DNA from: Hemileia vastatrix
Lineage: Eukaryota; Basidiomycota; Pucciniomycetes; Pucciniales; Zaghouaniaceae
DNA: 64,000 nucleotides
Direction of reading: 5' to 3'
NCBI GenBank assembly: GCA_030280995.1
Contig: JASXTE010000012.1
Span: 10,396,001 to 10,460,000 of the forward strand
Shown here piece after piece: positions 7,832 to 48,272 of the stretch. The position numbers and the translations under genes were made by a program. The stretch's first letter is position 1; the number at the start of each line of letters is the position of its first letter. A model generated the notes under the pieces. It was not told where the DNA came from. It saw only the letters and a list, made by a program, of their open reading frames with translations, and ran no database searches.

Positions 7832-8456
7832 ATGTTCATCTTTCTTTCTAAATCTGCTACTGATATGGGTCCTTGCCAATATTGCATTGACAAAAATCTC
7901 ATCTGTACCATCACACCACTGGCTCATCCCTACAGAACCTCCTGTGATGCCTGTCACTCTAGGAAGAATACTTGTTTCAGACCTGGTCCATTGTCCTCTT
8001 CAACATCTTCTCCTCCTCCACAACTTGATCCACCTTATACCAGCACCAAAAGATCCAGACCATCCATCCTGATACCCAGACTGGTCAACAAAATACACCC
8101 TTCAAAAAAGAGTTCCAACCCCGCTACAACCACTAGCTCTACCATCCTTGGTCCTTCTGATGGTAATCCCAATACTTCTTCATACTGAAATTTAATCTGA
8201 CAAATTTCCAGTTCATTTCTATTCAGAGAGTGATGATGACAATGTGGGAACAATTGAAGCACCCCCAACTAATCCCATGCCCACCATCAAAGAGAAACAC
8301 CAACAACATTCTTCTCAACAGAAGCATCTCATTCTAAATAACTTCCAATCCACTCCTGCCAAGAATCCACAGGACCTTGAGAAAAGGAAGAACCCCATTC
8401 ACCAGTTCAAAGCCAATGCTGAACATTTTTTTACATCTCTTGATTCTTTTCTGTAA
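7832..8456 (+). CDS. Antisense Zn(2)Cys(6)-like cysteine-cluster protein of element C
   Basis: Two exons, 7832-8162 and 8212-8456, joined across a 49-nt intron (donor GTAATC, a CTGAC branch-like site, acceptor TTTCCAG), give an uninterrupted 191-codon frame. It starts 48 nt inside the 3' LTR and runs opposite to gag. Residues 16-38 carry six cysteines spaced C-x2-C-x6-C-x12-C-x2-C-x6-C. The second triplet (CDACHSRKNTC) fits the Zn(2)Cys(6) half-site pattern of fungal transcription factors; the first lacks its usual basic residues. A Ser/Pro/Thr-rich linker with basic stretches, an acidic patch (SESDDD) and a Lys/Gln-rich tail follow. ATG at 7832 is the first in frame; Met12 is an alternative. 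Seen: the frame, splice signals and Cys spacing. Inferred: zinc or nucleic-acid binding. Elements A and B carry counterparts, so this is unlikely to be chance. Confidence 0.65.
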
Positions 8457-8504
8457 TTGCTTCTTGCCTGAAAATCATGATTTAAAAATAAAAAAATAAA
8501 AAAG

Positions 8505-9965
8505 TCTCCTCAGTTTAAAGTCTTGGGGGACTAATCCTCAGTTTTAAGTCTTGGGGGACTAACAGCCCTCATTTTATAGTCTTGGGGGACTCAAAACCCT
8601 CAGTTTATTGTCTTGGGGGACTAAAAACCTAAATCAAATAGATAGAACCAGAGATCAAAACATTAAAGACCAAAGAAACAAACTAACATTCTGGGGTAGC
8701 TTTTCTAAAGAGCAGCCAACTCATCAGTTACCCCCACACTTGCCTTAACTAAATTCAGAGACTCCCCCTTTGGATGCCCTCTGCCAGAATTACACCAACA
8801 TCACATTATCAGTTTATAGTCCTGAAGGGCTCAACCATCAAACCATCCTCAGTTTATAGTCTTGGGGGACTGTAGCATTCTTTAGTCTAAAGTCTTGATG
8901 GAATGACCACAGTGTTCAGTTTAAAGTCTTGATGGAATTCAGAACCCAGTGTTCAGCTTAAAGTGTTGATGGACTTCAGAACCCATAGAGGATTCAAGTT
9001 CTTGAAATAAAATTGTAATAAGCCAGTTTAAAGTCTTGGAGGACTAGTAGATCCAAAAAAGCACAAGCCAAATTATTGATAAAATCTTGAAAACCAGCCA
9101 GTTTAAAGTCTTAGAAGACTAGCAGATCCACAGTAGTAACAAAATTAAAAATCTTGAAGCAATCTTAAAAAAAACCAGTTAGTTTTAAGTCTTGGAGGAC
9201 TAACAGAATATCTTGAAGTAGTATCCAACAGTTCTTGAGTTCCACTAGAACCTTCATCCTGTCTCAAAAATAATAAAAAATAAAAAAATAACAAAATGGT
9301 ATCCCCCAGTCAGTTGATGAGCTGATCCCCTGATACCATACCCACATCCAAGTGCACCTTGATGTGCTCACACCTAAAAAATTATTTTATTTATTTTGAC
9401 TTCTTCTTTGCTTCCAAAAAATATTTCCAGAGCCCTATCTTGAGCCTTTGAACAAACATAGCCTCCATAAAAAAATTAAAAGAAAAAAAGAGAAAAAAGA
9501 AAATAATCTTGAATACACAACTTTTACAGCCAACACCCTAAAACCACATAACAGAGCCAATTCCAGGTTCATAGAAAAGATCACTGGGTGGGCTCCCTCC
9601 AATAAGTAAAAATGATGGGAGACTTCCAGTGATCCACCACCAATCCAAATAAACTAAAGATAAAGAAGCCAGTCCCAAGCCATTTTAAAGTCATAGTGGA
9701 CTTGAAACCTGAATAACAGAAACCAGAACTAGGATTCAACTAGGACAAACAAAATAATTGAAACAGACATTATGGGGTAGCTGCTCTACAGAGCAGCCAG
9801 CTCATCAGTTACCCTCACACTTTCCAAAATAAAATCTAGAAGCCCCCCCTGGGTACCTTCTAACAAAAACACAACATCCAACACAATAAACCAAAATCAA
9901 TTAGCGTGAAGAGTATGGCACTTGAAGAACAAAAAAATTTCCAGTTTAAAGTCAAAGAGGACTAA
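8505..9965. repeat. Dispersed 21-bp hairpin repeats replacing pol in element C
   Basis: At least 14 copies of a motif like CAGTTTAAAGTCTTGGGGGA+CT occur between 8505 and 9965, first in tight tandem (8510, 8536, 8566, 8599), then spaced 30-100 bp. Most contain AGTC, six variable bases, then GACT (loops TTGGGG, TTGGAG, TTAGAA, AAAGAG, ATAGTG), so a short stem is kept while the loop changes. No coding frame is evident. Confidence 0.75.
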
Positions 9966-10135
9966 AACCTGTGAAGAAAACCAATACTAGGGTTCAACAA
10001 AATTAAGAGAAGGGGTTGGAAATAGAAAATATGGGGTAACTGCTATACAGAGCAGTCAGCCCATCATTTACCCCCACACTTTCCAAAATCAAATATAGAA
10101 GCCCCACCCTTGGATACCTTCTAACAAAAGGATTT
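8690..10135. repeat. Three copies of a ~100-bp structured box
   Basis: Copies start near 8692, 9773 and 10031. Each has GGGGTA, an inner inverted repeat (best copy: GCTGCTCT and AGAGCAGC around AC), a spacer, then TTACCCC pairing with the opening G run, followed by a shared tail around AGAAGCCCC and CCTTCTAACA. The layout suggests a conserved two-stem fold. They are interleaved with the 21-bp hairpin repeats. Confidence 0.7.
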
Positions 10136-10383
10136 TCCAACACAAATCTTCTCCCATAAAAAACCAAAACCATTAAAAAACCATTAAAATTCTTGAAAGC
10201 CAGAAAATCTTGAGAGAGAACAGATAGTTGATAAAAAACATGAAGAATTATTGCAGAGAAGAGAAACATTAAAAAGAGAAACTTGAAAATCCACTTGGTA
10301 TATCTCCAAGGGAGCTGACCTACTACAACCTGGGATTTCCTCATCTTGGGGAGAGGTTGTAGCACTAGGGCAACCAGCCCTCA

Positions 10384-11160
10384 TCACTCATAAAAAGAAA
10401 GACTCCCACTAAAGCCTGAGTCACCCTCCAAAAAACCAGAGGCAGCACCAACTTCTTTTCTTCTCCTACAACAATCCATGCACTGGCACATTGAAGAAAA
10501 GCCAGGCCTGGTCTCCCAACCATCATCTCCAGGAGATGACAACCTCATGTGAAGTCTTCTTTCATCTTCACCAGTCAACTCCAAACTGATTCCCATATCA
10601 AAATGATAACCAATTCTTGCCTAAAAATCCATCAAGAATGGTCCACTCAAAACAGCTTTTACATTACCTTTGGCAATGTAAAAATGAACTTTCCCTGAGG
10701 CTCCACCAACATCCAGCTTCACAAATTCAGCTGTTCCAATCAACTCAGTGACATGGCCACCAATCCCTCTTAAATTTCCACAAATTCCTGTTTTGATGGG
10801 GAGGCCCAGATGAGTAGCCTCAAAAAAAGAAATCAGGTTAATATGAGAACCTGAATCAGCCAATGCCCTAGCCTCCCTGCAATTCAGAGTGACATTGACA
10901 TAACCCAGAGGTTTCAGAAAAATGAGTCTCCAACCCCTCACCAAACTTCTCAGCAGAATCACAAATGTATTCCATCTCCCCAGAAGAAACCCTTCTCCTG
11001 GTCAACAACTTTTTCTGTCTATCAGCCAACCTAGGACTGATAGAATACAACTTCCCATAAGAAAGGGAAACCTGACCCTGATTCATCCTTTCCAGAACAG
11101 AGTACATAACATAAGATTGGTCAGAAACTACTGGCCTCTCAAAGTGAGCCCTTGGCTTCA
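10384..11160 (-). pseudogene. Retropepsin (aspartic protease) region of element C
   Basis: Minus-strand frames join around 10.9 kb with one frame change. The protease core reads REARALADSGSHINLIS (Asp-Ser-Gly instead of Asp-Thr-Gly) and continues through IGTAEFVKLDV, VHFYIAKG and VLSGPFLMDF. After a stop it goes on with GISLELTGEDERR and SSPGDDGWETRPG. The tail matches the element-B protein at 31569-31826 (GMPFLMDYSA, PKDSGWETK), which places C and B in one Ty3 clade. RT would be expected next, but the frame ends near 10384 and the repeat block begins. Stops and the frame change make it nonfunctional as read. Confidence 0.7.
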
Positions 11161-12750: not shown

Positions 12751-12788
12751 TCAAAGACAACAGAGATTCCAAAGAACTAGTAGGTTCC

Positions 12789-12808
12789 ACCCCATGTTGG
12801 GTGCTAGA
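12789..12808 (-). promoter_or_regulatory. Primer-binding site of element C
   Basis: Immediately after the 5' LTR (minus sense) the sequence reads TTTCTAGCACCCAACATGGG. The core GCACCCAAC resembles tRNA-3'-end complements used by Ty3/gypsy elements and parallels TGGTGTCCCAACAGTGG in element B. The tRNA is not identified. Confidence 0.55.
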
Positions 12809-12810
12809 AA

Positions 12811-14156
12811 TGTAGACAATCCTATAGTACTAGCTATAGGCCATTACCAAAGGAGTTGGAGAAAACCCAGAGAGAAAATACCCTGTCCCTTTAAAAAAAT
12901 GAAGTGAGATTTACCTGCTACAGAAAATTGGTTCCTGTTTGATAAAGCCCCTTTTCCAACACACTTGACTTCCTGATCAGCCAAGAAAGTATTCTCCAGA
13001 CAGACTACCAAACCATGGAAGTGAAATTAAGACCAATGTCCACACCAGAGAAAGCAATAATACTTGATGTAGGTTGAAAATTCACACCAGAGACAGCAAT
13101 AATACTTGATATAGCTTGCAAGACTCACTATGCAATATAGGGGGTGGACTTGCTAGCAAGTCCCCAACCTGAACTCAGATGGAACTCAGACTGAACTCAT
13201 ATTAAACCCATACTGAACTCTACTTGAACACCCACCTAAAACTGTTCTGCTGAGTGGTGTTCATCCCTGATTGTATGGTTCCTTTGTCAATAGCTCAATG
13301 TGTGTTCAATCTGGGGTGAGTTTGGGTCGAAGGTTGTGGACTCGCTAGCAAGTCCGCCCCCCATATTGTGTGGTGACTATACCAGAGAAACTAGTTACCA
13401 AGTTAAGTTAAATGAAGAACTCACCTTGCAACAAATACAGCCAATTGTGACCAAAAAAACAGTGAAAAATGAGTGAGGAACAAGGATATCACCCCGGATG
13501 GTTGTATGATAATTAAAGTTGCCCTAAACTGTCTTATTCACAATTTACACACAGACCACTATCAAAGAGCCCCTGCACAACAACGAATTTGGTGTTTTTG
13601 AGTGCCAAATTGCATTAAACTCCTCTAGAAACGCTTCCCAGCCTTCTAGCACCAAGGCAGGTCATCTGCCTGACATTGGCCTGAGGCGGCCAGACCACCC
13701 TGAATCAAGAAAACCACCAAAAACCACCAAAAATACCCAAAATACTTAGAAAAATCTACTACAACTACTAAAACCTTTAAAACACATAATTAGGCTATAA
13801 CAACATTGAGACATGAAATGTAGAGAAAAATTATCTATTTCTAACGGTACTAAGCTCTTAACCTTAAGATTTAAGGTTAGCCCGTAAAACGCAAAAAACC
13901 AAGTTAAACAGCTATCTTTTTTTAATAAAAAAATGAGAAATTATCCTCTTAATACTTAAAATCTGAAAAATGTCATAAAGACATAAAATAGAGAGAAACC
14001 CAGGACTATCCAATGGTAGTACCCACATTCCCACAGTCCCAATATTTGCTAAATATTTCCAGAAAAACACCCAATTATTAAATAATGCCATTTAAGAAAT
14101 ATCAAAACAACACCAAAAAGACCAGCAAAGGGCTCTTCCAATGTTGGAAGACCACA
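12811..14156 (-). repeat. 5' LTR of element C (with inserted miniature element)
   Basis: 1346 bp; removal of the insertion (13136-13375 plus a 3-bp duplication) leaves 1103 bp, against 1099 bp for the other LTR. The plus-strand boundary TGTAGACAATCC is intact here. Confidence 0.88.
13136..13375. mobile_element. CACTA-like miniature element, 240 bp
   Basis: Starts CACTATGCAATATAGGGGG and ends with the complement of CACCACACAATATGGGGG. Subterminal GGACTTGCTAGCAAGTCC is itself palindromic. Flanked by ACT on both sides (13133-13135 and 13376-13378); the empty site is visible in the other LTR. CACTA-type termini with a 3-bp duplication fit the EnSpm/CACTA superfamily. No coding capacity. Confidence 0.85.
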
Positions 14157-31090: not shown

Positions 31091-31826
31091 GAGGATTCAG
31101 AACCCAGTTAATGCAAAATATCCTAGGGTAGCTGAAGATTTAATTTCAGAATGTCTTAAAACAACAGTTTAAGTGCCATTAGGGGTGTTAATGGCACTAG
31201 TGCTAGACATAGCAAATGGCATAGTAGATAGATGTAGGAAGAAAAGAGTTGTGAATTGTGTTTAGTATGATTTAGAAGAACATTAATTTCAACCAGTTGT
31301 GGGACTATCAAAGGTGCCACACTATGCAGGGCCATTAGGGTTTTTTATTGTTATCATTAATGGGAATCAGATCAGAGTAATAGTAGATACTGGTTCTCAG
31401 ATAAATGTAGTTTCTGCAGAGGATTCTGTGGATTAAGGTTTTTCAGTAAAAGATGGTGAAGGAACTGTGGCAGGTATTGGAGGTGGTATGTTACCCATTA
31501 TAGGGGTAGCTGAATATGTGAAGACGTGAGTTACAGGAGCGTCAAGAGATATACACTTTTATGTTCCTATGGGTGTAGTGAAACCAGTTTTGGGAATGCC
31601 GTTTTTGATGGATTATTCTGCAACAATATATTATTTTTTGAATAAGACTATAGGGATTAGGATTATGGGTGATGATAGTATTCCAGTAACAGCAGTCTTA
31701 GCAGTGCCTAAGGATAGTGGCTGGGAAACTAAGTATGTTGGATCTGTGAGTTTGGAGAAAGAAAGAGAGTTTTATGAGGATGAAAGGAATGGGAGACCAC
31801 CAGTGAGGCCCCAATCTTTTCATTAG
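31091..31826 (+). pseudogene. Aspartic protease of element B
   Basis: The frame shows GNQIRVIVDTGSQINVVSA (catalytic Asp-Thr-Gly at about 31385), VAGIGGG, GVAEYVKT and then GVVKPVLGMPFLMDYSA and PKDSGWETK. Four or more stops interrupt it. It is the counterpart of the element-C protease. Confidence 0.7.
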
Positions 31827-32101
31827 GGTCTGTCATTCTATGTATTACTATATCCCATAGTGAGAAGAGCCCTGATAGTGATCAGTCATACCAAGAAGGG
31901 ATACATAAATTGGGAGTTCACAGGTGTTTTGGTAATACTACTATAGAGTGTATCGTGCCTTGACTTTTTAATTTCTTTGATTATGTATTTTTTTATACTT
32001 CAATTAGGAAGAAAAGACAAAAATATGATGTAGTTACAACTTGGAGTTATATTAGAAAAGGTCTAATATTAATTAATGAAGGCAGCAGCTGGTTCTTTCT
32101 A

Positions 32102-33785
32102 GTGTCAAAGTATAAACCAGTAGCAGTTAAGGGTAAACCAGTAAATGTACCAATGCAAGATTTGAAACCTCCTTTTCAGAGGCCTGAGCTATCAAGAAAT
32201 TCTTATGAAACTCCTTTAAAAAAGTTTCCACTAGAATTTATGCCTACAGATAGGATAACTCTAGAAAGAATTCAGATGGTTAATTTTGGGCAAGAAGGTT
32301 GGTTGTTGCAGGAGGAAAAGAATTTACTGTTATATGTTATGGTACTTAGGGAAAAAGCTATTGTGTTTTCAGAAGAAGAAAAAGTTTCATTAAAGCACTC
32401 TTATTGGAAACCTTATGTTTTTCCAGTTATATTTCATGCGCTGTGGCGAAAGAAAAAATTTCCTATACCTGCAGCAATAAGAGTAGAATATACAGAATTA
32501 ATTAGGGAAAGTTTAAGTTCTGGCTTGTATGAACAATCAATGTCTAGCTACTCAAGTCCAGTATTTTTTTTGTCAAGCATAATGGCTAATTAAGGGTTTT
32601 TCATGACTTAAGAGAAATGTACAAGGTTACGGTTAAGGATGCAGGATTACCATCAATGCCAGAAGAATTTGTGGAATCTTTTTCAGGTCAAGCATGGTAC
32701 AGATTATGATATATAATGGGATGATATGATGAGAGCGAGTTAGATATGTTGTCAAGGCCAATGACTACATTTGAAAATCCATTGGGGAGCTTCAGGTTAA
32801 CAAGGTTACCACAAGGTGCTGCAAACTCAGTGGCAGTATATCAGGCACAAATGATGTGGATATTACAGGATAAAATTACAGATCATGTAGGAATTTTTAT
32901 TGACAATTGTGGTATAAAAGGAACAATAACTGACTATTACAGGGAGGTTCTAGAGGATAAACCAAGCATAAGGAGGTTTATTTGGGAATACACAATTACT
33001 CTTGAAAGGGTACTTTTTAGGATAGAAGAGGCTGGTTTGACAGTCTCAGGGTCAAAATTTTCTTGTTGCGTACCAGCGCTAAATATTGTTGGTCATGTTG
33101 TATGTAGGAAGGGAAGAATAATCACAGAGAAGCAGAAAAACAAGGAACTTATGTGGCCAAGACCAAGAAACACTAAAGAAGCTAGGAGGATTTTAGGTAT
33201 TTTCACCTATGTGATAATTTTCATTTGTGATTTTGCCTTGTTATCTTCTCAATTAAGGCATGTGACAAGAAGGATGTTTTATGGGATTGGAAAGAGGAAT
33301 GTGAAGAATCCTTTGAGTTGTTAAAAAGGATAGTAGGGAAAGAAATTCTTTTAAAGAAACTGGAATACAGGCAAGGTGCTGGAAAGATTACTCTAGAAGT
33401 AGATTCAAGTGTGTCTGCAGTAGGCGCAGTTTTGATGCAAGAGGACAAAGAAGGAAATGATAGAACTTTCCTTTATGAATCAAAGACTTTTAAAAAGGTG
33501 GAGTCTAGATACTCTCAATCTAAGTTAGAGTTGTGTGGGGTTGCAAAGATTTTGAAGAAGTTGAAATGGATGCTTTGGGGGCAACATTTTAAGTTGCAGG
33601 TTGATGCACTATCTTTGGTGCAAAAGATCAGTAGTCTAAGTTTACCAGATGTGCCAATGACTATATGGGTGGTGCAGATCAATTTATTTTATTTTGATTT
33701 AGTCCATAAACCAGGAGAATTTTTATCAATGCCAGACTCCTTGTCAAGAAGGCCATTTTGTAAAGAGGATTCTGAGGAAGAATAA
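32102..33785 (+). pseudogene. Reverse transcriptase and RNase H of element B
   Basis: Upstream fingers carry FPIPAAIRVEYTELIRE; the palm reads FENPLGSFRLTRLPQGAANS and GIFIDNCGIKG, where the FIDD-type catalytic pair has become Asp-Asn. RNase H follows from 33385 with LEVDSSVSAVGAVLMQEDK, ESRYSQSKLELCGV and LQVDALSLV. The LPQGAANS and FIDx-GIKG signatures mark a Ty3 clade common in basidiomycetes and distinct from chromoviruses. A stretch near 32593-32745 and another near 33320 break the frame. Confidence 0.75.
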
Positions 33786-34202
33786 TTTGAAGAAGATAAG
33801 AGGTGGATAAATGGAATAGATTGTTGTTATCAAAGGTTTAGAAATGGGAAAAATTTCATCCACAAAGATGTAAAATTAGATACTAGCATCTGGGAAAATG
33901 TGAAACTAGCAACTAATGTCCGCAAAGACGTAAAACTAATGGCCAATGTCTGAAAACACAAAAAACTATCATCAGTGTTTTTAGGCAGTGTCTGAAATGA
34001 CGTTAAACTAAGAAGGTTTAAGGAAAGTGATCATGATGAGATCAATGCGCAAGATTTTGATGTCGAAGCTAATGTATTAACAAGAGGAACTTCAGGTAAA
34101 GCAATTCAGGAATCAGAAAAAGAGGATAATGGATTGACATCAAGTAATGAATAATATACACTCTCAGAGGATGGGGATTTAGTCAAGGAGCCAATTGAGC
34201 AA

Positions 34203-35366
34203 ATGGATTGCCTGAGAAAGTATCTGGAAGAAGATAGTCTACCAGAAAATTGTGATGAAGACACATGGTGCAAAGTAAGGAAGCTTGCTAAATATTATTT
34301 TATTAAAGATGGATGGGTATTGAGGGAATGTTTTTCTACACCACAATTAGTAATAACAGATAGAGCTAGGAAAGAAAATATTCTTAAAGAATTACATGAG
34401 AATTCGGGACATAGGGGACAAGATGAAACTTCTAGAAGAATCAAAGAACAATTTTGGTGGCCAAATATGAGAGCTGAGGTAAAGGGTTGGGCTCAATATT
34501 ACCTGGAATGTAAGAGCAGAAGTTATAGAAAGCCTAAAGAAAAGGGGATGGCAATGAGAAAGGATACTGTTTTTGGTAGGATTAGATTGGATGCAGTTCA
34601 TATTAAAAAAGGATTCTTTAAGTACTTGGTTGTGGCCAGGGATGATCTTTCAGGATGGGTTGAAGCAGTGCCTTTAGTAAACCTTAAGGCCATTAATATA
34701 GCTGAATTTTTAAAGAAGGAATGGGTGTATAGATATGGAGTAATAAAAATGGTAGCTTTGGATGGGGGAACTGAATTTTCTGGTGAGTTTAAATAATTTT
34801 TGAAAGGGATTAGTGCTAAAATTCAAGTTGCTACACCGTATTATCCAGAGACAGAAGGTTTCATAGAGAGAGGGAATCAAGCGATAAAAGATGCATTAGT
34901 TAAGCTATGTGGAACTAATGGGGGAAAAAGGAAGAACTATTTGCCTTTAGTATTATTTACAGATAGGATTTCAGTGAAAAGGATGACAGGTTTTTCACCT
35001 TATGAAATTATGTTTGGTCAAAGGGTGGTAATACCTATTGAGCTGGAAGCTGGATCTTTTCCAGGATGTGATTGGGATAATATGTGCTCAACTGAAGATT
35101 TAGTTTTAGCAAGAGTAGCGCAACTTGAAAGAAAGGATGAATTTGTGGGAAAGGCATATGAAAGAATGATGCAAATTTGGGATAAATCAGTTAAATATTG
35201 GGATGAGCACTTAGTGCATAGGTTAAGGGAACCATTGAAACCAGGGGGCTTGGTATTAGTATACAACAGAAGTCTTGAAATTCAATGGGGTAACTGTTTG
35301 AAGACAGGTGGAACAGTCATTATAGCATCAGAAAACAAATTACTGGAGGAATTGGATGGTACTTAA
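34203..35366 (+). pseudogene. Integrase of element B
   Basis: Zinc-binding region: ELHENSGHRGQDETSRRI, FWWPNMRAEVKGWAQYYLEC (the second of the paired Cys reads Ser in CKSRS). Catalytic core: RLDAVHIKKGFFKYLVVARD, LDGGTEFSGEF, then a TAA at 34794-34796, then PETEGFIERGNQAIKD, so the D-D-E residues are present but split by a stop. C-terminal part continues to a TAA at 35366. No chromodomain follows. Confidence 0.75.
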
Positions 35367-36112: not shown

Positions 36113-36870
36113 TTATTTGGGCATGATGAAGCTTTTGGGATCTTCAGGAAAACCATGGATTGATGTGGAGCTTATTTTGTTCATTAATTGATCAATAATT
36201 TCAATATGATTGTGACAAGAATTTAACTCATTTTCAGAAAGTTCAGAAGCACCACTGTAGGAAGATGACATGGTGTCATATATAAGGCAAAGGCACAAAA
36301 AGATTTTCATTGAATGCACAAATGGGAGAGGTTGGAGGACCCATCCTAAGAAAATATATTTTTTAAAACCCTTGAAGAAATTAAAATTAGAAACGATTGT
36401 GTGAAAGTAAGGGTGATGGACTCACTAGCTAAAATATTTGGAGGAGGTGCAGACGGGGATAGCACTCTCAAAGAGTTGGGAGCCTTTGAAGAGGATTGTT
36501 GTGATTCCACAATTTTTTCAGAAGATTAGGGAGATTCTGCCTTTGGATGTATGGAGATTTCTTGCCAACAGTATTTAGGGAGAGATGCGCTGTCAGGAGA
36601 CAAAGCTTCAGAGGAAGGATGAGTAGTGCTACTGGTACTAGCTATTATAGTAGAAGTGCTAGAATTATCTCTGGAAGGGAACTGGATATAGCCATTATGA
36701 GAAGTAGGGCATTTATAAGAAAAGGTGCAAGTCTTATGAAATTTGAAACATTTATCACAAGCACATCTAAAAGCAGAATAACCATGAGGCTTGGATAAAG
36801 TACAGTTAAAGTTGCAATGGTGGAAAAAAGTGCAATACTTATATCTAGGTAAAGTATGGCATATGGTCAT
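36113..36870 (-). pseudogene. Antisense cysteine-cluster gene of element B (asB2)
   Basis: Exon 1 runs from an ATG at 36870 to 36426; intron 36425-36346 (donor GTGAGT, acceptor TTCTTAG, 80 nt); exon 2 runs 36345-36113 and rejoins in frame (phase 1), ending at a stop. One in-frame TAA lies near 36526. Cysteines are spaced C-x2-F-x6-C-x14-C-x2-C-x6-C, where Phe replaces the second Cys; the second triplet is CDKCFKFHKTC. A Ser/Thr/Pro-rich linker and a helical C-terminus (SENELNSCHNHIEIIDQLMNK) follow. Same plan as asC and asA. The chromovirus target duplication ATGGC overlaps the start codon, so A cut the gene from its upstream DNA. Confidence 0.6.
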
Positions 36871-36873: not shown

Positions 36874-37675
36874 TGTCACGCTCCACGTGACACTCGAGGC
36901 AAAAGCAGCTCATTAAATCAATAATAAGAGGCCCAAATCCATACTCGAAGCACAGAAAGCAATTCTCCATAGCAACTGCAACTTTCCTTTGTGTACTTGC
37001 TATTCAACCGCGCTAGCCTAAACTCTAAATCTAAATTAGTCAATCTCTCAATAGTGTGTCTTAGTCTTTTTCTCAATAAGCGACGCACAGCGCAATAGTT
37101 AATATAATAGTACATTAAAAGGTTTATGAAATGTCTGTGGGTTATTAAGGGGTAGTGAGCATGGACGGAATGGTTAGTGGAGAATTAAGGGGTTAACGGA
37201 TGTTAGTTAGGAGGGTCCAGGTGTAACGAATGTATTTTAATGGTCTGTGGTGTGCGGAATAGTGGATGGGTATGAGGTCAATGCGAGGAGGAGTAAAGGA
37301 TATAAAATGGGTTGGGTTTTCGGTTTGATATTCTTTAGAATTAAATTAAAAAACATATTTATAGTTAATAGTGGTAAAAGCTTTTAAGTTAAATCATTAT
37401 TATTGTATCTTTCTTTATTTTCTCAATAATCATTTCTAAATCCTAAATCTTTGATTTTTGAGTTTCCAACCCTTTGTGAGATCTTAAGAATTTTAATATT
37501 ACCTTTCAATTATATTAGAATCCTTCTCAAACATAACTCAAGGTAGTAGTTCTTCCTTTGACTCATCTTCAAATCACTTCCTCGAATCATTCCTCTGTGC
37601 TTCGAAGAAGTCTCTAAACTCCTCATCTCACTTACAGGAACATCCTCAACCTTGTGCATAGGTCTTCCAGTGACA
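36874..37675 (+). repeat. 5' LTR of chromovirus A
   Basis: 802 bp, TG...CA ends. Contains TATAAAAT at 37301 and a short minus-strand open frame that is incidental. Confidence 0.92.
37301..37348 (+). promoter_or_regulatory. LTR-A TATA box and predicted transcript start
   Basis: TATAAAAT at 37301-37308. About 36 nt downstream, AGAATTAAATTA (37337-37348) matches the complement of the primer-binding site, suggesting that transcription starts here as in Tf1-type elements. Equivalent bases in the 3' LTR are 46315-46328, a perfect 14/14 match; the 5' LTR copy matches 13/14. Confidence 0.55.
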
Positions 37676-37752: not shown

Positions 37753-38940
37753 ATGACACCTGTTCAACGTACTCCTCCTACAGGCGCTACTACTAGAGCT
37801 CGCGCCAGAGGCAGGCCAACAGCCACTTGGCCTGTTTCCCGCACTCACTCCTTAGAGCCACTCGACCTTAGGGAATGGCAACATTCAGTCCAATCTGTAG
37901 AAGACATCCCAGAAGATTTTGATGATTCTATTGATGATGAAGAAGGAGAGGATACAATGCACAAGGCACCATCCGCCCCTGCTAATCACCCTTCTGGTCA
38001 ACCTTCAGAACCTGGATCATCTAATTCTCTGGAAGATTTCATGAGACTTTTCATGAAGACCCTTTCAAATTCAACGTCTTCAGAGGGATCTAAATTCAAA
38101 ACTCCTTCTATGAAATCTCCTGATCAATTCAATGGAGAACATCCAGACAGATTGCAACCCTTCTTGCAAACCTGCAAGCTCCTGTTCCATAATGACCCTT
38201 GAACCTTAAATAACGACAGATCGAAGGTTGTTTACGCTTCTTCATTCCTAGCCGGAAAAGCAGCAAGATGGTTCAAACCTTATCTTCTCATGCTCTCCTC
38301 GACCAAAACCCACTTACTTATTAATAACTGGGAAAAGTTTGAAGACTAAGTCTTCACATTGTTTGGTGACCCTAATGAAACTGACAATGCAGAAATTGAA
38401 CTTGATTTTCTTTGCATGAGTGATAATGGAAAAGCCTCTGAATATATCTCAAACTTCAGAGCGCTTCAAACTCGAGTAGGTTGGAATGATGCTGCCCTCA
38501 AGTATCATTTCAAAAAAGGACTTCCTTCGAGGATTCTGGATCAGTTAAATCTTCACGGTCAGAAGATGACTACTTTAACAGATTTAATGGATCAAAACCT
38601 CAAACTCAAAGACGTTTACCAAGGAGGACTTCAACAACGTCGATACGCCAACAAATCTCAAGGCCTAAATTTTAAATCGGGACCTTCTTCACAACCACGG
38701 ACAACTCAATCCTCCTCAATTCAATCCAAACCCAATAAGGGAAAGGACAAACCTCAACTAAAAATCTCGACCCCAGGCAATATCAGTAAAGTACTGGATC
38801 CTAAAGGGGAACCTAAAGAAGCTGAGAGGAAGAGGCGAGCAGATAATGGGTTATGTATGTATTGTGGGGGTAAGCACAACCTAGAAGATTGTGTAAAGTT
38901 GAAGGAAAGAGAAGGTACTAGTTCAAAGTCAAAAAACTAG
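37753..38940 (+). pseudogene. Gag of chromovirus A
   Basis: A single frame of about 395 codons with two stops (38200-38202 and 38347-38349). Order: Arg/Thr-rich start, acidic stretch, capsid (FLAGKAARWFKPYL, ASEYISNFRALQTRVGW, FKKGLPSRILDQL), basic Gln/Ser-rich region, then the zinc knuckle CMYCGGKHNLEDC (C-x2-C-x3-H-x4-C). The first stop probably derives from TGG. Pol follows in a different frame after 14 nt. Confidence 0.85.
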
Positions 38941-38954
38941 TAGATAGTTTACTT

Positions 38955-41900
38955 GTGTGCAAAGCAAACTATCTTATCTCTCCCAGTGCACAGAACCTCC
39001 ATGTCTTAAGGACTGGAGTTGCCTTAAATCTCTTGAGATTCATTCTTTTCAAGGAGGATACACCCTTCAGTTGTCTTATAGACTCTGGAGATTCAATTTC
39101 TTTTTTCAGTTTATCTTTTGCCAAAAAGTTACAGATGACATTTACAGATATCAATCAAACTCCAATTTATTTGGTCGAATCAGAGGAACCCAAATATTGG
39201 GTCAGTAAGAAAGTTTTATGGGCTTTCAACTTTCTGAACTTTCCCCCCTTCGAATGGGAATTATCAGTCTTGGATGCCCCAAGGATGGAAGATACCATTC
39301 TTGGCCATGACTTTTTAATGCATTGGAATCCTGAAATTGATTGGACACGGGGATTGATCACCCCAAGCACTAAGTATATTTTTAATTCTTCAATGCAGTT
39401 CAATAGGGAGTTAAACAACTTGTCTGACAACGTCCTGCTAGAGGACAAATCTATGCCAGATGACTTGCAAGCATCTGATATTTCTTTAAATGAGCAATTG
39501 GCTAACCCTTCTAGCTCGATGACTTCACTCGAAGAGGAGTTAAATTTCCTCAAAGCAATTGAATTATGCTTCCTCAATTCTGGTCTTCCCTCGACAGATT
39601 CCCTCAAAGATGATGATGACAACCAAATCAATGTTGAAGCCATTAAATCAACTCTACCAGAAATCTATCATGATTTCCTTGATGTTTTTTCAATCCGCAA
39701 GGCCAATAAGTTACCACCTCATCAACCATACAACCATCAGATAGAGTTAATAGGTCCAGTACCTCCGGCAGGTCCTGTCTATTCTTTGTCGAAGGACAAA
39801 TATCAAGTTCTTTGAGACTACATTGCAGAGAATGTAGCCAAAGGTTTCATCAGAGCCAGTAAATCTCCAGCCAGCTCCCCTGTTCTCTTTGTAAAAAAGA
39901 AGGATGGTAGTCTTAGGTTGTGTGTTGACTATAGAAAGCTCAACACAGTCACTAAGAAGAATGCATATCCTGTTCCCCCTATGTCATTGCTTCTTACCCT
40001 TTTCAATGGTGCTAATTTCTTTTCTAAAATTGATCTTAGAGGTGCTTACAATCTTATTCGCATTGCGGAAAGTCATTAACCACTGACTGCAATGTGCACT
40101 AGATTTGGTAGTTTTGAATATTTAGTTATGCCTTTTGGATTGGGTAATGCACCATCTTCTTTTCAAACTTTTGTCAATGAAATATTTCAAGATGTTTTTG
40201 AACAATTTGTTGCCGTCTATTTAGATGATATTTTAATTTTCTTGAAGACACTAGACAAAAATATTCATCATGTTAGACAGGTTCTAAATCGACTTCAAGA
40301 TCACGGTCTCTACGCCAAGCACAATAAATGCGAATTCCACCTTAAATCTATTGATTTTTTGGGTTTTACATTATCCACTGACGGATTAGTCATGGAAAAT
40401 AAAAAAGTCCAAAAGGTCCTGGAATGGCCTGAGCCCAAATCCTTTAAATCCCTCCAGGGATTTTTGGGTTTTGCAAATTTCTATAGAAGATTTATTAAAG
40501 ATTGCTCTAAAACTATTTCCAATCTTACTTCTCTTCTTAGAAAAGATATTCCTTTTGTTTTTACTCCCACAGCACAAAAGGAATTTGAAGCATTGAAGAC
40601 GGCGTTCACCACAGCTCCGATTCTTTGACACTTTGATCCTTCTGCTTTGACAATAGTCGAGACAGATGTGAGCGATTATGCTATCGCAGGGGTCATTTCC
40701 CAATTAAATCCTGAAACAAAATTGTTTCATCCTGTTGCTTTTGAGTCACACAAACTCATTGCAGCAGAATTAAATTATGAAATTCATGACAAAGAGCTTT
40801 TAGCTATTATTCATTGTCTTAAAAAATGGCGCTCTTTTCTTCTCAGCTTAGATAGTCCTTTTCAAATTTTAACAGACAATAATGCTTTGAAATACTTTAT
40901 GTCTTCCAAAGTGTTAACCAGGCGTCAAGCCAGGTGGGCTGAATTTCTGTCTGAATTTTCTTTTTCTATTTCCTATCTCCCAGGTAAAAACTGCATTGTC
41001 CCAGATATCTTGTCACGTTGGGACGATGTTTACTCACAGCAGGGGGACGCATTTGCTGACAAGAACCCAGCAAATGTGAAATCAATCTTCAACGAATCAA
41101 TGTTAACAACTCATCAACTTAATTCGATGACAATTCAATCTTTTCAAAATGCACTATCCAACATCCTCAAAGCTCAGTCGAAGGACAATTATTGTTTAGG
41201 GTTAAAAGACAAAATACTCTCGAAGCAAAGGGCCAAAAGATTTAGTATTGAATCAGGTCTATTAGTTTTCGAGGGAAGAGTAGTCATACCCGACAACAAT
41301 GAAATAAAATTATGGATTTTCAATAGTCTACATGATTCTCCATTAGCTGATCATTTTGGGGTTGATAAAACCTACCAGTTAATAGCGAGGGATTTCTACT
41401 GGCCAGGTATGACCAGGGAAATCAAGGCCTATATAAAATCTTGTTACAAATGTAATAGGAATAAGGCTCCCCTTCACCGGAAGTATGGGTTGCTTCAACC
41501 ACTTCCTATTCTCTCTAAACCTTGGGAATCTTTATCGATGGATTTTATTTCTCTACTTCCTCTTTCTAATAATTTTGATGCTATATTAGTAATATTAGAT
41601 AGATTTTTCAAAAATTTCTATTTTTATTAAAACCACTACTACTGCTACAGCAGAAGATTTGTCAAAATTGTTTCTAGAATATGTATTTTCCAAACACAGC
41701 TTTCCTAATGATATTATTTAAGATAGAGGCTCATTGTTTGTATCCACATTCTGGACTCAACTGTGTCGACAAATCAATATCAGGTGGAACCTCTCCACAG
41801 CCTATCATCCTGAAACTGATGGGCAAACAGAAAGGGTCAACCAAATCCTCGAACAATACCTTCGAATGTATGTCAGTTACCAACAAGACGATTGAACCAC

Positions 41901-42587
41901 ATGGTTACCATTGGCCGAATTTGCTTATAATAACTCAACTCATTCTTTGGCACAATAATCTCCTTTCAAAACTGTTTATGGAAGACATCCTCGATTCAAC
42001 TCAATTCACGTAGGAACTAATCATCCTGTGGAACATTACCTTCGAACCATTTCATGACTCCAAGAAGAACTTAAATCAAATTTGGAATTAGTGGTTCGAA
42101 GGTACCAGGAACAGGCTGACAAACATCGACAAACTGCTCCTTCTTTTAAACCAGGCGAAAAAGTATGGCTTGATGCAAAAAACATTTGAACGACTCGACC
42201 ATCAAAGAAACTGGCTGAAAAACGCTTGGGACCATTTGCAATTGACTCTGAAGTCTCTAAAACTGCATTTTGACTCAAGCTACCTCCTAAATGGCAGGCT
42301 ATTCACTCTGTTTTCACGTATCTCTCCTGGAAATGGCTCGAGAAACATACCCGGGCAAGAACCAACCTCCTACGGAACCGGTCATAGTAGAAGACCATCT
42401 AGAGTGGGAAGTAAGCCACATCCTTGATTCAAGAATGCGCAAGGGGAAACTTCAATACCTCGTGGAATGGGAAGGCTTCCTCGATGACTCAGACAAAACA
42501 TCCTGGGAACCAACCATCAATGTTTCTAACGCCCCTGAACTCCTAAAATCTTTTCATCTTAAATATCCTTTAAAACCAAAACCTTAA
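38955..42587 (+). pseudogene. Pol polyprotein of chromovirus A with chromodomain
   Basis: Protease: FSCLIDSGDSISF (DSG) and [66 protein letters not shown], intact YLDDILIF (about 40219). RNase H: VETDVSDYAIAGVISQ, NYEIHDKELLAII, LTDNNALKYF. Integrase: [54 protein letters not shown]. Chromodomain at the end: HILDSRMRKGKLQYLVEWEG, TSWEP. At least eight stops (several where the family consensus has Arg, so CGA to TGA) and two frame changes near 41.61 and 42.31 kb, both in the integrase part. The chromodomain normally steers integration to modified histones. Confidence 0.9.
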
Positions 42588-43440: not shown

Positions 43441-44415
43441 TTAAATTCTCTCTTTTATTTTATCCCGAACCAATCCCTTCATCTTCTTCAAAATCTCTCT
43501 TATTTCCTTTCTACATTTTTCAAAATTCTCCCCCTTTCCTACCAGAATCAATTCTCCAAGTTCCAATAGCTCCTCAGCCACGTCGAAGGAGGCAGCATCA
43601 ACAATCCTATCAATTTTGCCACTTAGGTCTTCAATAAATCTCATTCGTCGAACCGGGAAAGGCTTCTTCGACCATACCTGATCAAGGGTTTCTTCATTCT
43701 CCTCCCTTGAGGTAACCACTGGTAATCTATCTTTGATTGACACCGCCACTTCCACAGAAGTGGGTTCCACAAAGGTTGCTTCTGCATTCAAAGCTTCCGC
43801 CGTAGGGACTTCTGTGATGACGTCTGAATTCTAAAAACAAGATCATCAGTCATTAGATTTCTAAAATATCAGGGAATGGACTTACTTCGAAAATAGGGTC
43901 TGCTTCTAAAAATAATTTTGGAGTAACCTCCACCACCACTTTCTTCTCCTCTTTGTCATCCTCGATGACCACCCGTCACTTCTTCGGGGTCTGTCTTGAG
44001 ATGGAGACCTCCTCTTCCTCCTCAACTAACTTGTCGATTTCATCTTCGAACACTCGCTTCTTGCTTGTAGCCCAAGTCACCCATGTTGCTACATCAGCTT
44101 CAGCTTCTTTCTCATTTTCTCCCACCAAATGATCATCCCCAATGAACACATCTCAAATTTCTTGGGAATTACCCAATATTTTGTCTTAGTGAACTGACTC
44201 TTGATGTTGGCATTCTTTGACAAGGCGTCACACGCAACCCTTCTCCATCAGCAAAATTCGCACTTCTGGAGAGGACCTCGTGTCGCCATGCTTTCTACGC
44301 AAAAGTACTCCATTGACTTGCAGGCCGTGCAAGTCTTGGAATATTGTTGTGTAACCATGCCCCCATCTGCTTTAGGGTGTGGAGGCGTGGGAGTTGGAGT
44401 AGGGAGATCTGTCAT
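43441..44415 (-). pseudogene. Antisense cysteine-cluster gene of chromovirus A (asA)
   Basis: Starts at ATG 44415. Exon 1 (44415-43886) contains six cysteines spaced C-x2-C-x6-C-x12-C-x2-C-x6-C (CTACKSMEYFC; CEFC to WRRVAC), identical in spacing to asC, with a TGA inside the second triplet. It then needs a frame change near 44145 and passes one more stop; the middle is acidic (EDEIDKLVEEEEEVS). Intron 43885-43831 (GTAAGT donor, CTGAT branch-like site, TTTTTAG, 55 nt), phase 0. Exon 2 (43830-43441) is fully open: after ENEETLDQVW it forms a charged helical C-terminus (DRIVDAASFDVAEELLELGE, then a Lys/Glu coiled coil). Decayed in exon 1. Role unknown. Confidence 0.6.
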
Positions 44416-44496
44416 AATAAATTAAAGAATAATTAAATAAGGAGGGAAGAGAAATTAGTGCGGGAAGTATGTTTAATGCTCAACAGAGCTCGAGTT

Positions 44497-44502
44497 CTTA
44501 TA
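44497..44502 (-). promoter_or_regulatory. TATA-like box for asA
   Basis: Minus-strand GGGTATAAGAAC lies 82 nt upstream of the asA start codon, between it and the 3' LTR, in the place where a polypurine tract would be expected for the sense strand. Confidence 0.45.
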
Positions 44503-44512
44503 CCCGGGCATC

Positions 44513-46653
44513 TGTCACGCGCCACGTTGTGGTACGCGCCTTGCAGGAAGCGTGATATTAGACCAATCATTGCGCGTAGTCCAGGAAGAACAAAGGGGAG
44601 CTAGCGCAGCAGGAAATTTTAAAATATAATATGTATTTGCGTGTTTCAAGGAACAAAGGAAATGGAAGCGCGGAAAAAGATTGAGGGTCTGTGCGCTCAG
44701 ATTTTGTAGCAAAATGTGCCGCACAATGGGGAATTGTGTGTTATTGATTTAGGACCATAAAGCGCTAAACAATATGGATTTGGGCTTTCCAAAAAGTATG
44801 TGTTACACATTAAGAAGAAAGTCATGGATTAAGGACAACTCAAGTGCATGGTATGCTGTACCGCGGCCAGTTGGGAAACTTACTGAGACAAGTAATAAAG
44901 AAGGCTAACTAGTAAAGCGAGCTGTCAGAACTACAAACCTAGTATTAAAGCAAAGAGAGTGGAGACTCAATCCTAAAACTACCCAAGAGTTAAGGCAACT
45001 AGACGCAGAGTTAGGATAAGTCAAACCTGGAACTAGCACTGAAACAAAACAAGGTATAGTTAAAGGCGCATATGTGGAGAATCAGTGAAACAAGTTAATA
45101 CTAGTGTTAGTAATTATAGGGTCTGATTTAGGAGCTGTAGTTGTTGCAAGCAGTGTAAGTAGCATACTAATAAATTAGTTATTGTTTTACTAATGTGTCG
45201 CTAGAGTCAGCGCTGGAGATCCATTAGGGAACTGTGTCTTGAGCGCTGGAAGAATATAAAAGGAGGACTATTAGATAGGGACAAAAAGGAGAACTGGTCG
45301 ATCTATCTATTTAGTTAATAAAATAAGAAAAATCAAATTAGTTGTCATTTTAAAAAGCAGATCATAAAGAAAATCAATATAGAGATATACGTGTAGCTAT
45401 ATTCATAGTACCCAGTATAAGATATTAGATCATTTGTGTTTAATTGTTTGAGAGAATATTAAAAGGTATTTTCTGAGTCTTTAGAGTTTGTGCGTCTGTG
45501 TGTGTATTTCATATAGTATAGTGAAAGAGCGCAACATAGAGAGAATATATAGATTCAGTGGGATTAACTATTATTAGAGATATTTTATTACTATAATAAG
45601 ACAAATTCAAAGAGAGCGCTTCAAGAGGGAGTAGATGTGGATAATAGCGCTTGTTAAGAATAGAAATATCAGGATAGTAGTGCTTGTTTCCTTATCTTTA
45701 ACTCATCTCAACTTATAAACTTTCTAGTCAAATATTAGTGTTACACATTATTACACTGTCTTTAAAAAATAAGAGTGGCAGGCGCTTCTTTTTATAAATT
45801 AAAAAGGAGAACCAACCCATCTCGCATTGTGTCTACTGCTTAGTACTTTAGAACAGTCTACAATGTGACACTCGAGGAAAAAGCAGCTCATTAAATCAAT
45901 AATAAGAGGCTCAAATCCATACTTGAAGCACAGAAAGCAATTCTCCATAGCAACTGCGACTTTCCTTTGTGTACTCGCTATTCAACCGCGCTAGCCTAAA
46001 CTCTAAATCTCAATTAGTCAATCTCTCAATAGTGTGTCTTAGTATTTTTCTCAATAAGCGACGCACAGCGCAATAGTTAATATAATAGTACATTAAAAGG
46101 TTTATGAAATGTCTGTGGGTTATTACGGGGTAGTGAGCATGGACAGAATGGTTAGTGGAGGATTAAGGGGTTAATGGATGTTAGTGAGGAGGGTCCAGGT
46201 GTAACGGATGTATTTTAATGGTCTGTGGTGTGCAGAATAGTGGATGGGTATGAGGTCAATGCGAGGAGAAGTAAAGGATATAAAAGGGGTTGGGTTTTTG
46301 GTTTGATATTCTTTAGAATTAAATTATAAAACGTATTTATAGTTAATAGTGGTAAAAGCTTTTAAGTTAAATCATTATTATTGTATCTTTCTTTATTTTC
46401 TCAATAATCATTTCTAAATCCTAAATCTTTGATTTTTGAGTTTCCAACCCTTTGTGAGATCTTAAGAATTTTAATATTACCTTTCAAATATATTAGAATC
46501 CTTCTCGAACATAACTCAAAGTAGTAGTTCTTCCTTTGAGTAATCTTCAAATCACTTCCTCGAATCATTCCTCTGTGCTTTGAAGAATTCTCTAAACTCC
46601 TCATCTCACTTACAGGAACGTCCTTGACCTTGTGCGTAGGTCGTCCGGTGACA
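44513..46653 (+). repeat. 3' LTR of chromovirus A, interrupted
   Basis: Parts 44513-44527 and 45867-46653 add up to 802 bp, the same as the 5' LTR. The gap is the solo LTR-B with its target duplication. Confidence 0.92.
44528..45862 (+). repeat. Solo LTR of the B family inside LTR-A
   Basis: 1335 bp, starts TGTGGTACGCGCCTTGCAGG and ends AGAACAGTCTACA like LTR-B; TATAAAAG at about 45254. Flanked by ACGT (44524-44527) and ATGT (45863-45866); the uninterrupted LTR-A reads CCACGTGACAC, so this is a 4-bp duplication with one CpG to TpG change. It retains more CG dinucleotides than the other B LTRs, so it is the youngest B-family insertion here. Confidence 0.88.
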
Positions 46654-46658
46654 ATGGC

Positions 46659-47225
46659 TAATTAGAAATTGTGAAGTCTAATGGATTAGATAAGGTAGAA
46701 GAGTGGATTACAGGTGCTGTGAGGACGCAAGGAAAATGAAAGCGCTGAATAATATCCAAGTGGGAACCCCAATCAGAAGAAGAATATAGTGTATCAAGCT
46801 TTACAGGGCAAGAAGGTTAGCGCTAAGGAGCTCAAGATATTGGGAATATCTGAACTTACTTCAAGAATATGAGGATTAATCAGATGAGGCGCTAACAAAA
46901 TTAGTTATGTGGGGAAACTTTTATTGTCTCAAGGATATTCAGACAGAGTCAAAGAAGAGTTTTCAGGGGAAATTTTATTTTCCTAAGAAAAAAAAATCTC
47001 TCACTCGCACAGAATAATAATGGGAAATATTTGGCAACAGAATTTTTTTTTGGGGAAAAAGATTTTTTATTATTAAAAAGGAAATAATAATATACTAAAT
47101 AAGTTTTTTTACAGAGGAATTCAAATTAGGGAATCAGGAAAGGAGAGGAAAACGCTGAGGGGAATGAAGAAAGAAAAGAAAGGTTAGTGTTAGAATAGTG
47201 AATAAGGAGAAGTATATGACTTACT
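46659..47225. other. Element B remainder after the A insertion
   Basis: Resumes element B. No frame seen. On the minus strand, CTAATTAG just before the interrupted asB2 start could be a splice acceptor, so an upstream asB2 exon may lie here. Confidence 0.35.
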
Positions 47226-48272
47226 TTATAGCCTATCAAGGAAAGAGGACTCCAAGTCATTGTGAATATTATTGTAAGTTGAATTAAGGGTTTTGACTAA
47301 AGTGACTTGGTTTTGAACATCCTGCTCATCAAGAGCCAGAGTATTTTCAAGGTAGGTGAATACTGCATCAAAGAATGTATTGAACTGGTCAAAAGTGTGG
47401 TAATAGGGTTCTGCAACAACTCAATTTAGAACTTTCCAATCTTGAGGTAAAAGGAGGTTGATTCTAGGAGCATCTTCCTTTGATGTATTATTTGACGTTT
47501 GAGGGGCTGAGAACCAATCATTGGGAGTAAAAGGTGGAGGAGTGGACTCTTTTTTATGCAAGGCAATTTAATTTCATCCTTGATCCCAGGAGAGAATGTA
47601 GCACCAGGTACTATATCCCTGAAAGGATCTTCTTCTAGACCCAGGATGAGAATTTCTACATGAGGAGTTGGAGGAGTAGTGTTGTAAGGGGTATTAGGAG
47701 CCTCCTAAAAAGAGATAAAAAGAGAAGATTTTTTTAGAAATTAAAATAAAAAATTAGTGAAGAGAAAAGGACTTACGGTGTGACTTGACTCTTCAGAGAA
47801 GAGTGAACGGAGTATCATGTGTGATGCAGTGCTGGGCGTAGGCAAGCAATGGGTTTGTTTAGCTCTCTTAGGAGCTGGGCACTTGATGGCCAGCTGAACC
47901 ATTAGGTTTGACGTTGAAATGTTAGAGTTGACAACAGTAGGAGTGGAGGTTTCAGAAATGGCATGTGGACCATTGAGGCAGAATCTCTTTTTGTGACTTT
48001 TGAAAAAGTCACATGACTAGAAAAAGGAAGAATATGAGATCAGTAACAAAAAATTGGAGAATAAAGAAGAAAAAGAAAGGAATTACTGTAAAGAAGCTGT
48101 TACCACAGAAAGGCTTTGAGAAACAACACAGAGTGATTCCATTCTCTGTGCAGCACTAAGAATGCTTATCTCCAGTTAGAACAACCTTAATGACAGGAGT
48201 GGTAGCAATGGCTGTCTTCTGTGCATGAAAAAACTCTCAGATGGTTTTGGTGATATTGTTATTAGGATTCAT
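47226..48272 (-). pseudogene. Second antisense spliced gene of element B (asB1)
   Basis: ATG at 48272 (MNPNNNITKTI). Exon 1 ends at 48087; intron 48086-48017 (GTAATT to TTTCTAG, 70 nt); exon 2 48016-47777 contains KSHKKRFCLNGPHA and KCPAPKRAKQTHC; intron 47776-47705 (GTAAGT to TTTTTAG, 72 nt); exon 3 47704-47226 begins EAPNTPYNTTPPTPHVEI and ends in a helical segment (TFDQFNTFFDAVFTYLEN, then ALDEQDVQNQVTLVKTLNST). Two stops in exon 1, a frame change near 47.54 kb and a stop in exon 3 inactivate it. Exons 1 and 2 are Cys-rich, but the six-Cys spacing is not clean. Plan and position match asA. Confidence 0.55.

What the first reader, a model, noticed from the sequence alone, without database searches (positions are those of the whole stretch)
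7832..48272. The same antisense cysteine-cluster gene plan in three retrotransposons of two Ty3 clades
Elements A (chromovirus), B and C (basidiomycete-type clade) all carry antisense, intron-containing genes between pol and the 3' LTR. asA and asC share identical Cys spacing; asB2 has it with one Cys replaced by Phe and x14. Common plan: Cys cluster, low-complexity linker, one or two introns, helical or charged C-terminus. This points to capture by modular exchange or an ancient shared component. I know of no named description of it.
Basis: partly seen in the sequence, partly recalled or inferred. Interest (0 to 1): 0.88.

Follow-up and report, generated by a model that had tools for sequence, protein, structure and literature searches.

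The report
Antisense zinc-cluster genes in retrotransposons
Several jumping-gene families in this genome carry, on the strand opposite to their usual genes, small spliced genes for zinc-cluster proteins that selection has kept working, which suggests that the elements bring along their own gene regulators.

Summary
The three antisense cysteine-cluster genes are real and recur in the same 748-Mb genome. asA: 150 matches scored of 11,314 first-look candidates. asB2: 150 of 1,785. asC: 12 of 12 C-family copies with that region in view. asA and asC start 47-110 nt inside the 3' LTR, antisense to pol. Short introns are conserved and both genes show purifying selection: omega 0.40 (asA) and 0.21 (asC); older variants are more synonymous than singletons, p=8e-4 and 1e-6. 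The A/B-lineage clusters are related to fungal Zn2Cys6 (Gal4-type) domains with the halves apparently in swapped order; Pfam finds nothing in asC or asB2. Corrections: C, not A, is the chromovirus; A lacks RT and integrase and resembles B; the window's asC is broken. Kinship among the A/B-lineage genes is supported; kinship of asC to them is not, beyond Cys spacing. Antisense accessory genes are already known in plant Ty3 elements and Botrytis Boty, so this is a new variant of a known kind. The regulator role is inferred. I did not identify the organism.

The parts
6686..7783 (-). element A, 3' LTR
   Evidence: blastn LTR pair, 93.3% and 89.6% over two blocks
7832..8162 (+). asA exon 1 (antisense to A); cluster CX2CX6CX12CX2CX6C at 7874-7975; ATG 48 nt from the LTR
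   Evidence: Pfam Zn_clus 22.1 bits (cut-off 21) on 7832-8008, 18.6 bits on the longer reading
8163..8211 (+). asA intron, 49 nt, GT..AG
   Evidence: donor GT in 20 of 21 and acceptor AG in 20 of 21 aligned copies, window included
8212..8456 (+). asA exon 2, with stop codon
   Evidence: frame-consistent splice; selection signal
10624..11001 (-). element A protease
   Evidence: Pfam Asp_protease_2, 26.2 bits
11371..12675 (-). element A gag, 435 aa open
   Evidence: 26% over 285 aa to B gag, E=7e-14
12812..14156 (-). element A, 5' LTR (about 250 nt, 13126-13374, without counterpart in the other LTR)
26916..28222 (+). element B, 5' LTR
   Evidence: 82.3% to the 3' LTR
29709..35366 (+). element B gag-pol, broken into several open stretches (RT 32725-33321, integrase 34155-35366)
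36529..36870 (-). asB2 (antisense to B); cluster at 36834-36727 with Phe at the second Cys position and x14 linker
   Evidence: 150 matches scored of 1,785 candidates in the genome
47190..48272 (-). asB1, degenerate antisense gene next to B's 3' LTR (several stops; helical-looking tail)
   Evidence: six-frame reading; no tblastn match to asA, so kinship to asA not shown
48406..49660 (+). element B, 3' LTR
36874..37675 (+). element C, 5' LTR; target-site duplication ATGGC at 36869-36873 and 46654-46658
38350..41627 (+). element C gag, protease, RT, RNase H, integrase
42291..42584 (+). element C chromodomain
   Evidence: Pfam Chromo E=2.7e-12
43886..44415 (-). asC exon 1 (antisense to C); cluster at 44331-44230, interrupted by TGA in this copy
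43831..43885 (-). asC intron, 55 nt
   Evidence: GTAA..TAG, 55 nt, in 12 of 12 copies
43441..43830 (-). asC exon 2, charged helical-looking C-terminus
44487..44513 (-). CCCGGGTATAAGAA box just inside the 3' LTR tip, candidate antisense promoter of asC
   Evidence: CCCGGG in 11 of 11 and TATAA in 10 of 11 aligned copies (the eleventh reads TATGA), by my reading
45863..46653 (+). element C, 3' LTR; its first ~15 nt lie at 44513-44527, split off by a 1,335-nt insert

Best explanation
These are accessory protein genes of Ty3-type LTR retrotransposons. Each lies between pol and the 3' LTR on the opposite strand, starts within about 110 nt of the 3' LTR (the second-gene type lies about 1.4-1.8 kb further in), and is read inwards into a short spliced mRNA. 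The product has an N-terminal six-cysteine cluster, a low-complexity or acidic, NLS-like linker and a helical C-terminus. In the A/B lineage the cluster is related to the fungal Zn2Cys6 DNA-binding domain with the two CX2CX6C halves in swapped order. The most likely function is a small nuclear DNA-binding regulator of the element, for example tuning transcription from its own LTRs. Shown here: anatomy, recurrence, conserved splice sites, purifying selection, partial Zn_clus similarity. Inferred: antisense transcription, zinc binding, DNA binding, nuclear site, target.
For: Position and strand: asA ATG 48 nt from an A-type LTR in L014 and L049-L053, about 47 in L006; asC ATG 107-110 nt from the C LTR in 10 of 12 copies, 97 nt from the split LTR tip in the window, LTR not in view in L021. 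Copies. Selection on asA: omega 0.40 in 21 copies; shared variants 53 synonymous: 59 non-synonymous against singletons 74:183, p=8e-4; exon 2, which was not in the search query, p=0.0017. Selection on asC: omega 0.21 in 12 copies; 77:36 against 129:182, p=1.2e-6; shared changes by codon position 20:13:80. Splice sites. Zn2Cys6: asA first triplet to Zn_clus positions 18-33, 22.1 bits against a cut-off of 21; second triplets of L052 (21.0 bits) and L053 (15.5 bits) to positions 1-15; L052 to PPR1 E=4e-4. L022 reads open through both asC exons, 298 aa, with KKRR-type and acidic stretches.
Against: No expression data. Pfam finds nothing in asC, asB2 or the L006 second gene. asA exceeds the Zn_clus cut-off only as a 59-aa piece and stays below it in three longer readings. 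asA has no meaningful PDB match. The L052 gene has a stop in its first triplet and I did not see its element. In asB2 relatives the first triplet varies. asA exon 1 alone is not significant in the shared/singleton test (p=0.084), and the asA sample comes from a list ranked by similarity. The AlphaFold model is too poor to use (mean pLDDT 54). 0 of 16 RT loci of other families in my sample carry such a motif antisense and downstream, so the gene is not general to Ty3 elements here.
Confidence: 0.62

Rival explanations
1. The antisense RNA itself is the agent: a transcript from the 3' LTR edge makes double-stranded RNA with the genomic transcript and limits transposition, and the reading frame is incidental.
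For: A TATA-like box sits next to the LTR in C. The review PMC7264820 (parts 1 and 2 of 3 read) raises this for plant elements.
Against: Codon-position periodicity, omega 0.21-0.40, an excess of synonymous shared variants and a kept intron all point to a protein.
Confidence: 0.15
2. Recently captured host transcription-factor genes carried as passengers.
For: Zn2Cys6 factors are a common fungal family (recalled); the genes have introns, and host genes have introns.
Against: Same place and strand in many diverged copies, with selection acting through the element lineages. Each captured RNA passes through reverse transcription of the sense RNA, so antisense introns can persist and do not imply recent capture.
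Confidence: 0.1
3. The antisense protein acts in integration or nuclear import (targeting) rather than transcription.
For: C has a chromodomain and the antisense proteins carry basic stretches; PMC7264820 discusses nuclear import for plant antisense ORFs.
Against: Nothing here tests it; a DNA-binding-type cluster fits either role.
Confidence: 0.13

Closest known systems
brtn of Boty-like Ty3 elements, Botrytis cinerea (Zhao et al. 2011; seen only as cited in PMC7264820 and in passages of PMC8365987)
   Same: Fungal Ty3 element with an additional antisense gene between pol and 3' LTR.
   Different: Its sequence was not in hand, so protein kinship is untested. No zinc cluster, intron or selection was mentioned in what I read.
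Plant antisense ORFs: maize Grande gene23, rice RIRE2, Retand TRP28 ORFs (PMC7264820, parts 1-2 of 3; PMC11963269, passages)
   Same: [quoted passage not shown] nuclear or DNA-binding roles proposed; own promoter reported for Grande.
   Different: TRP28 (PF04195) did not appear in Pfam scans of the genes here. The proteins here have a cysteine cluster and conserved short introns.
Fungal Zn2Cys6 binuclear cluster (PF00172; GAL4, PPR1, LAC9)
   Same: Two CX2CX6C triplets; half-profile matches; PPR1 E=4e-4 for the L052 gene.
   Different: C-half comes before N-half; only partial profile matches; asC and asB2 not matched.
Additional ORFs shared among bdelloid rotifer LTR elements (PMC5408684; title and start of abstract in a listing only)
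   Same: Accessory ORFs shared between diverse retroelement types.
   Different: No comparison of sequence or orientation made.
Antisense genes of human T-cell leukaemia viruses (HBZ; as mentioned in PMC11963269)
   Same: A regulatory protein encoded antisense, transcribed from the 3' LTR side.
   Different: Different protein and host; analogy only.

Membership tests
Antisense additional ORF between pol and 3' LTR (aORF-3R) | Lies between pol and 3' LTR on the strand opposite to gag-pol | tested here: met
   Window A, B, C; L014, L015, L021-L028, L049 for asC and L050, L051, L053 for asA with integrase or RT on the opposite strand
Antisense additional ORF between pol and 3' LTR (aORF-3R) | Present in most copies and conserved like other element proteins | tested here: met
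   asC 12 of 12 C copies in view (2 more, L013 and L019, not assessable); omega 0.21. For asA, omega 0.40, but the share of A elements that carry it was not measured
Antisense additional ORF between pol and 3' LTR (aORF-3R) | Antisense transcription from its own promoter | not testable with these tools
   Only a conserved TATA-like box beside asC
Zn2Cys6 fungal binuclear cluster (PF00172) | Profile match over the curated cut-off | tested here: inconclusive
   22.1 bits for a 59-aa asA piece and 21.0 for L052 (cut-off 21); 15.5-18.7 for longer asA readings and L053; none for asC, asB2, L006 second gene
Zn2Cys6 fungal binuclear cluster (PF00172) | Canonical order: N-half (CX2CRX2KXKC) before C-half | tested here: not met
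   First triplet of asA aligns to profile 18-33; second triplets of L052 and L053 align to 1-15
Zn2Cys6 fungal binuclear cluster (PF00172) | Binds two zinc ions and DNA | not testable with these tools
   AlphaFold model from one sequence unusable
Retand TRP28 antisense proteins (PF04195) | TRP28 domain | tested here: not met
   Not among Pfam hits of the scanned antisense readings
brtn of Boty | Sequence kinship to brtn | not tested
   No brtn sequence in hand; shared protein database off
Single protein family for asA, asB2 and asC | Similarity beyond cysteine spacing | tested here: inconclusive
   Yes among A/B-lineage genes (3, 7 and 15 of 2,000 cysteine-fixed shuffles reach the real score); no for asC (481 of 2,000)

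The most novel reading that the evidence does not exclude
Retrotransposons of two separate Ty3 lineages each encode, antisense and spliced, a dedicated transcription regulator built on a half-swapped (circularly permuted) Zn2Cys6 cluster. It reads from the 3' LTR boundary, may bind the LTR-edge boxes next to its own promoter, and was acquired by the chromovirus independently or by exchange.
Probability: 0.35. Interest if true: 0.78.

Novelty: new variant of a known kind. Interest (0 to 1): 0.62.

Why it matters
Antisense accessory genes of LTR elements have no established function (PMC7264820). Here the coding signal is strong enough to say that the protein is what is kept, and in part of the family the protein resembles a well-understood DNA-binding domain. 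That turns an open question into a testable one: does the element bring its own regulator, and does it act on the LTR? A zinc cluster with swapped halves would also be a new arrangement of a textbook fungal domain.

Tried and rejected
Considered and rejected: chance cysteine pattern; a gene broken everywhere (12 of 21 aligned asA copies read open across both exons by my reading; 131 of 150 listed asA exon-1 matches have no stop, my count); a single cross-clade family including asC (not supported); two tandem asC genes in L014 (the second lies beyond the 3' LTR and overlaps an A-type LTR hit); A as an element with RT (no RT or integrase match).

Led nowhere: viral-contig scan with asA (11 stretches matched a pattern, none confirmed); PDB with asA; AlphaFold on one sequence, so no fold search was run; papers on rust repeats (PMC12210899: no occurrence of six terms including antisense and zinc). 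A first shuffle test held two out-of-frame rows; repeated without them. The profiles used 10 of 21 asA rows and 7 of 12 asC rows because a fixed reading offset and a length filter dropped the rest.

Not achieved: a genome-wide count of asC; element context of asB2 copies; any other genome. A full-text claim of absence rests only (open-access library).
Full report
WHAT IS THERE. The window is C103:10396001-10460000 of an unnamed 747.6-Mb genome in 791 contigs. Three LTR elements matter. A (minus strand; LTRs 6686-7783 and 12812-14156) has gag and protease but no RT or integrase match. B (plus strand; LTRs 26916-28222 and 48406-49660) is broken. C (plus strand) is nested in B with a perfect 5-bp target-site duplication, ATGGC, that overlaps asB2's start codon. 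A and B are related: gag 26% over 285 aa, E=7e-14; protease 45% over 96 aa, E=7e-21. C has a chromodomain and its RT is only 23% identical to B's over 172 aa. So the two-clade statement holds with A and B on one side and C on the other.

THE CLUSTERS. A six-frame scan finds the six-cysteine pattern three times, each antisense in the pol-to-3'-LTR part of its element. asA and asC share CX2CX6CX12CX2CX6C. asB2 has Phe at the second Cys position and a 14-residue linker. Strict matches in 100 shuffled windows: 0; loose: 0.35 per window.

RECURRENCE. The own-genome search with asA exon 1 scored 150 of 11,314 candidates, 83-100% identical (19 of the 150 hold a stop by my count). asB2 scored 150 of 1,785, many with stops. 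No asC search was answered. Instead I fetched 10 kb around the first 20 of 150 RT places, then eight C-type copies chosen for long open RT frames, not for the antisense gene. C-family copies whose chromodomain-to-LTR region was in view, window and L049 included: 12; all 12 carry asC antisense at the same place. L021 lacks the cluster end of exon 1. L013 (masked) and L019 (out of view) could not be judged. Of the other 16 RT loci none shows the motif antisense and downstream (that scan misses copies with a stop in the cluster, as it missed L015). asA copies: 20 short and 5 long stretches, of which two long ones repeat short ones, plus L006 and L014, make 25 distinct copies, all abutting an A-type LTR end. 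B-type integrase or RT lies on the opposite strand in L050, L051 and L053. In L051 the extra 5 kb with RT could be the element's own pol or a nested insert. In L049 the A-type stretch is interrupted by a C element.

A SECOND GENE. L053 and L006 hold, about 1.4 kb further in than asA and on the same strand, a second cluster gene (CX2CX6CX15CX2CX6C), 73% identical between the two. This matches B's layout of asB1 next to the LTR and asB2 further in. asB1 itself shows no tblastn match to asA.

CODING AND SELECTION. In 21 aligned asA copies the donor is GT in 20, the acceptor AG in 20 and the start ATG in 20. Omega is 0.40. Variants shared by two or more copies are 53 synonymous to 59 not; singletons, which mostly arose after insertion, are 74 to 183 (p=8e-4). 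Exon 2 alone, outside the search query, gives p=0.0017; exon 1 alone p=0.084. For asC in 12 copies omega is 0.21, shared 77:36, singleton 129:182, p=1.2e-6, shared changes by codon position 20:13:80, and the 55-nt intron is present in 12 of 12. Copies are related, so the p-values are guides. This is the pattern of a protein selected while elements are active and drifting after insertion.

START SITES. asA's ATG lies 48 nt from the LTR, so its transcript must start in the LTR or in those 48 nt (inference). asC's ATG lies 107-110 nt from the LTR in 10 copies and 97 nt in the window, where a 1,335-nt insert splits the LTR after about 15 nt. CCCGGGTATAA-type boxes stand just inside the LTR tip: CCCGGG in 11 of 11, TATAA in 10 of 11 by my reading. 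Two asB2 copies have a TATAAATA box upstream of the start (L054, L055, by my reading).

WHAT THE PROTEIN RESEMBLES. Pfam Zn_clus matches asA at 22.1 bits over the 59-aa piece (cut-off 21) with two stretches, the best being the first triplet on profile positions 18-33. Longer readings score 18.6, 18.7 and 15.5. The second triplet of the L052 relative matches positions 1-15 at 21.0 bits, that of L053 at 15.5. L052 also matches PPR1 at E=4e-4, and GAL4 and LAC9 at 0.3-2.5. So the halves appear in swapped order. L052's element was not seen and its first triplet holds a stop. asC, asB2 and L006's second gene have no Pfam match. By eye asC's second triplet (CEFCRWRRVAC) looks like the Gal4-type N-half. 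L022 reads as a 298-aa protein with basic and acidic stretches.

ONE FAMILY OR TWO. asA, asB2, the second gene and L052 resemble one another beyond the cysteines: blastp E=6e-10 to 0.002 without composition correction; 3, 7 and 15 of 2,000 cysteine-fixed shuffles reach the real score. asC does not: 481 of 2,000; hhalign E=0.031, probability 1.6%; best blastp 0.012 to L052. Independent capture and deep divergence are both open.

FUNCTION. Most likely a small nuclear DNA-binding regulator of the element (inferred from the domain type, basic stretches and selection). Autoregulation at the LTR edge is a speculation that fits the position. Nothing here shows expression, zinc or DNA binding.

COMPARISON WITH PRINT. 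[quoted passage not shown] PMC11963269 (passages) reports antisense TRP28 ORFs in 97% of Retand clusters with proposed DNA binding. PMC8365987 (passages) mentions brtn. PMC5408684 was seen in a listing only. My searches listed no paper on zinc-cluster antisense genes in LTR elements; the library is open-access only and two searches timed out.

Noticed in passing
6686-14156: Element A looks like a gag-protease-antisense-gene element without RT or integrase, yet gag is open over 435 aa and asA is intact.
   Followed up: partly
44528-45862: A 1,335-nt insert splits C's 3' LTR after about 15 nt. Its ends (TGTGG..CTACA) and about 100 nt at one end resemble the B-type LTR, so it may be a solo LTR.
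   Followed up: partly
8500-9250: Repeated units of the type CAGTTTAAAGTCTTGGGGGACTA between asA and the protease of A (seen by eye).
   Followed up: no
2629-3093: Reading frame matching the Tet-like 2OG-Fe(II) oxygenase family (PF20515, E=2e-14).
   Followed up: no
57107-58519: Minus-strand pieces matching GPI mannosyltransferase PIG-V (PF04188), probably a host gene with introns.
   Followed up: no
59401-59892: Match to the NAM-associated C-terminal domain (PF14303, E=1e-6).
   Followed up: no
14244-14651: Fragment of another reverse transcriptase (RVT_1, E=3e-13) just beyond A's 5' LTR.
   Followed up: no
L052:8345-8728: Divergent relative of asA whose second triplet is the closest to PPR1 and GAL4; element context not seen, stop in the first triplet.
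   Followed up: partly
L014:8485-8661: A second asC-like cluster beyond the C element's 3' LTR, overlapping an A-type LTR hit; its own element was not resolved.
   Followed up: no
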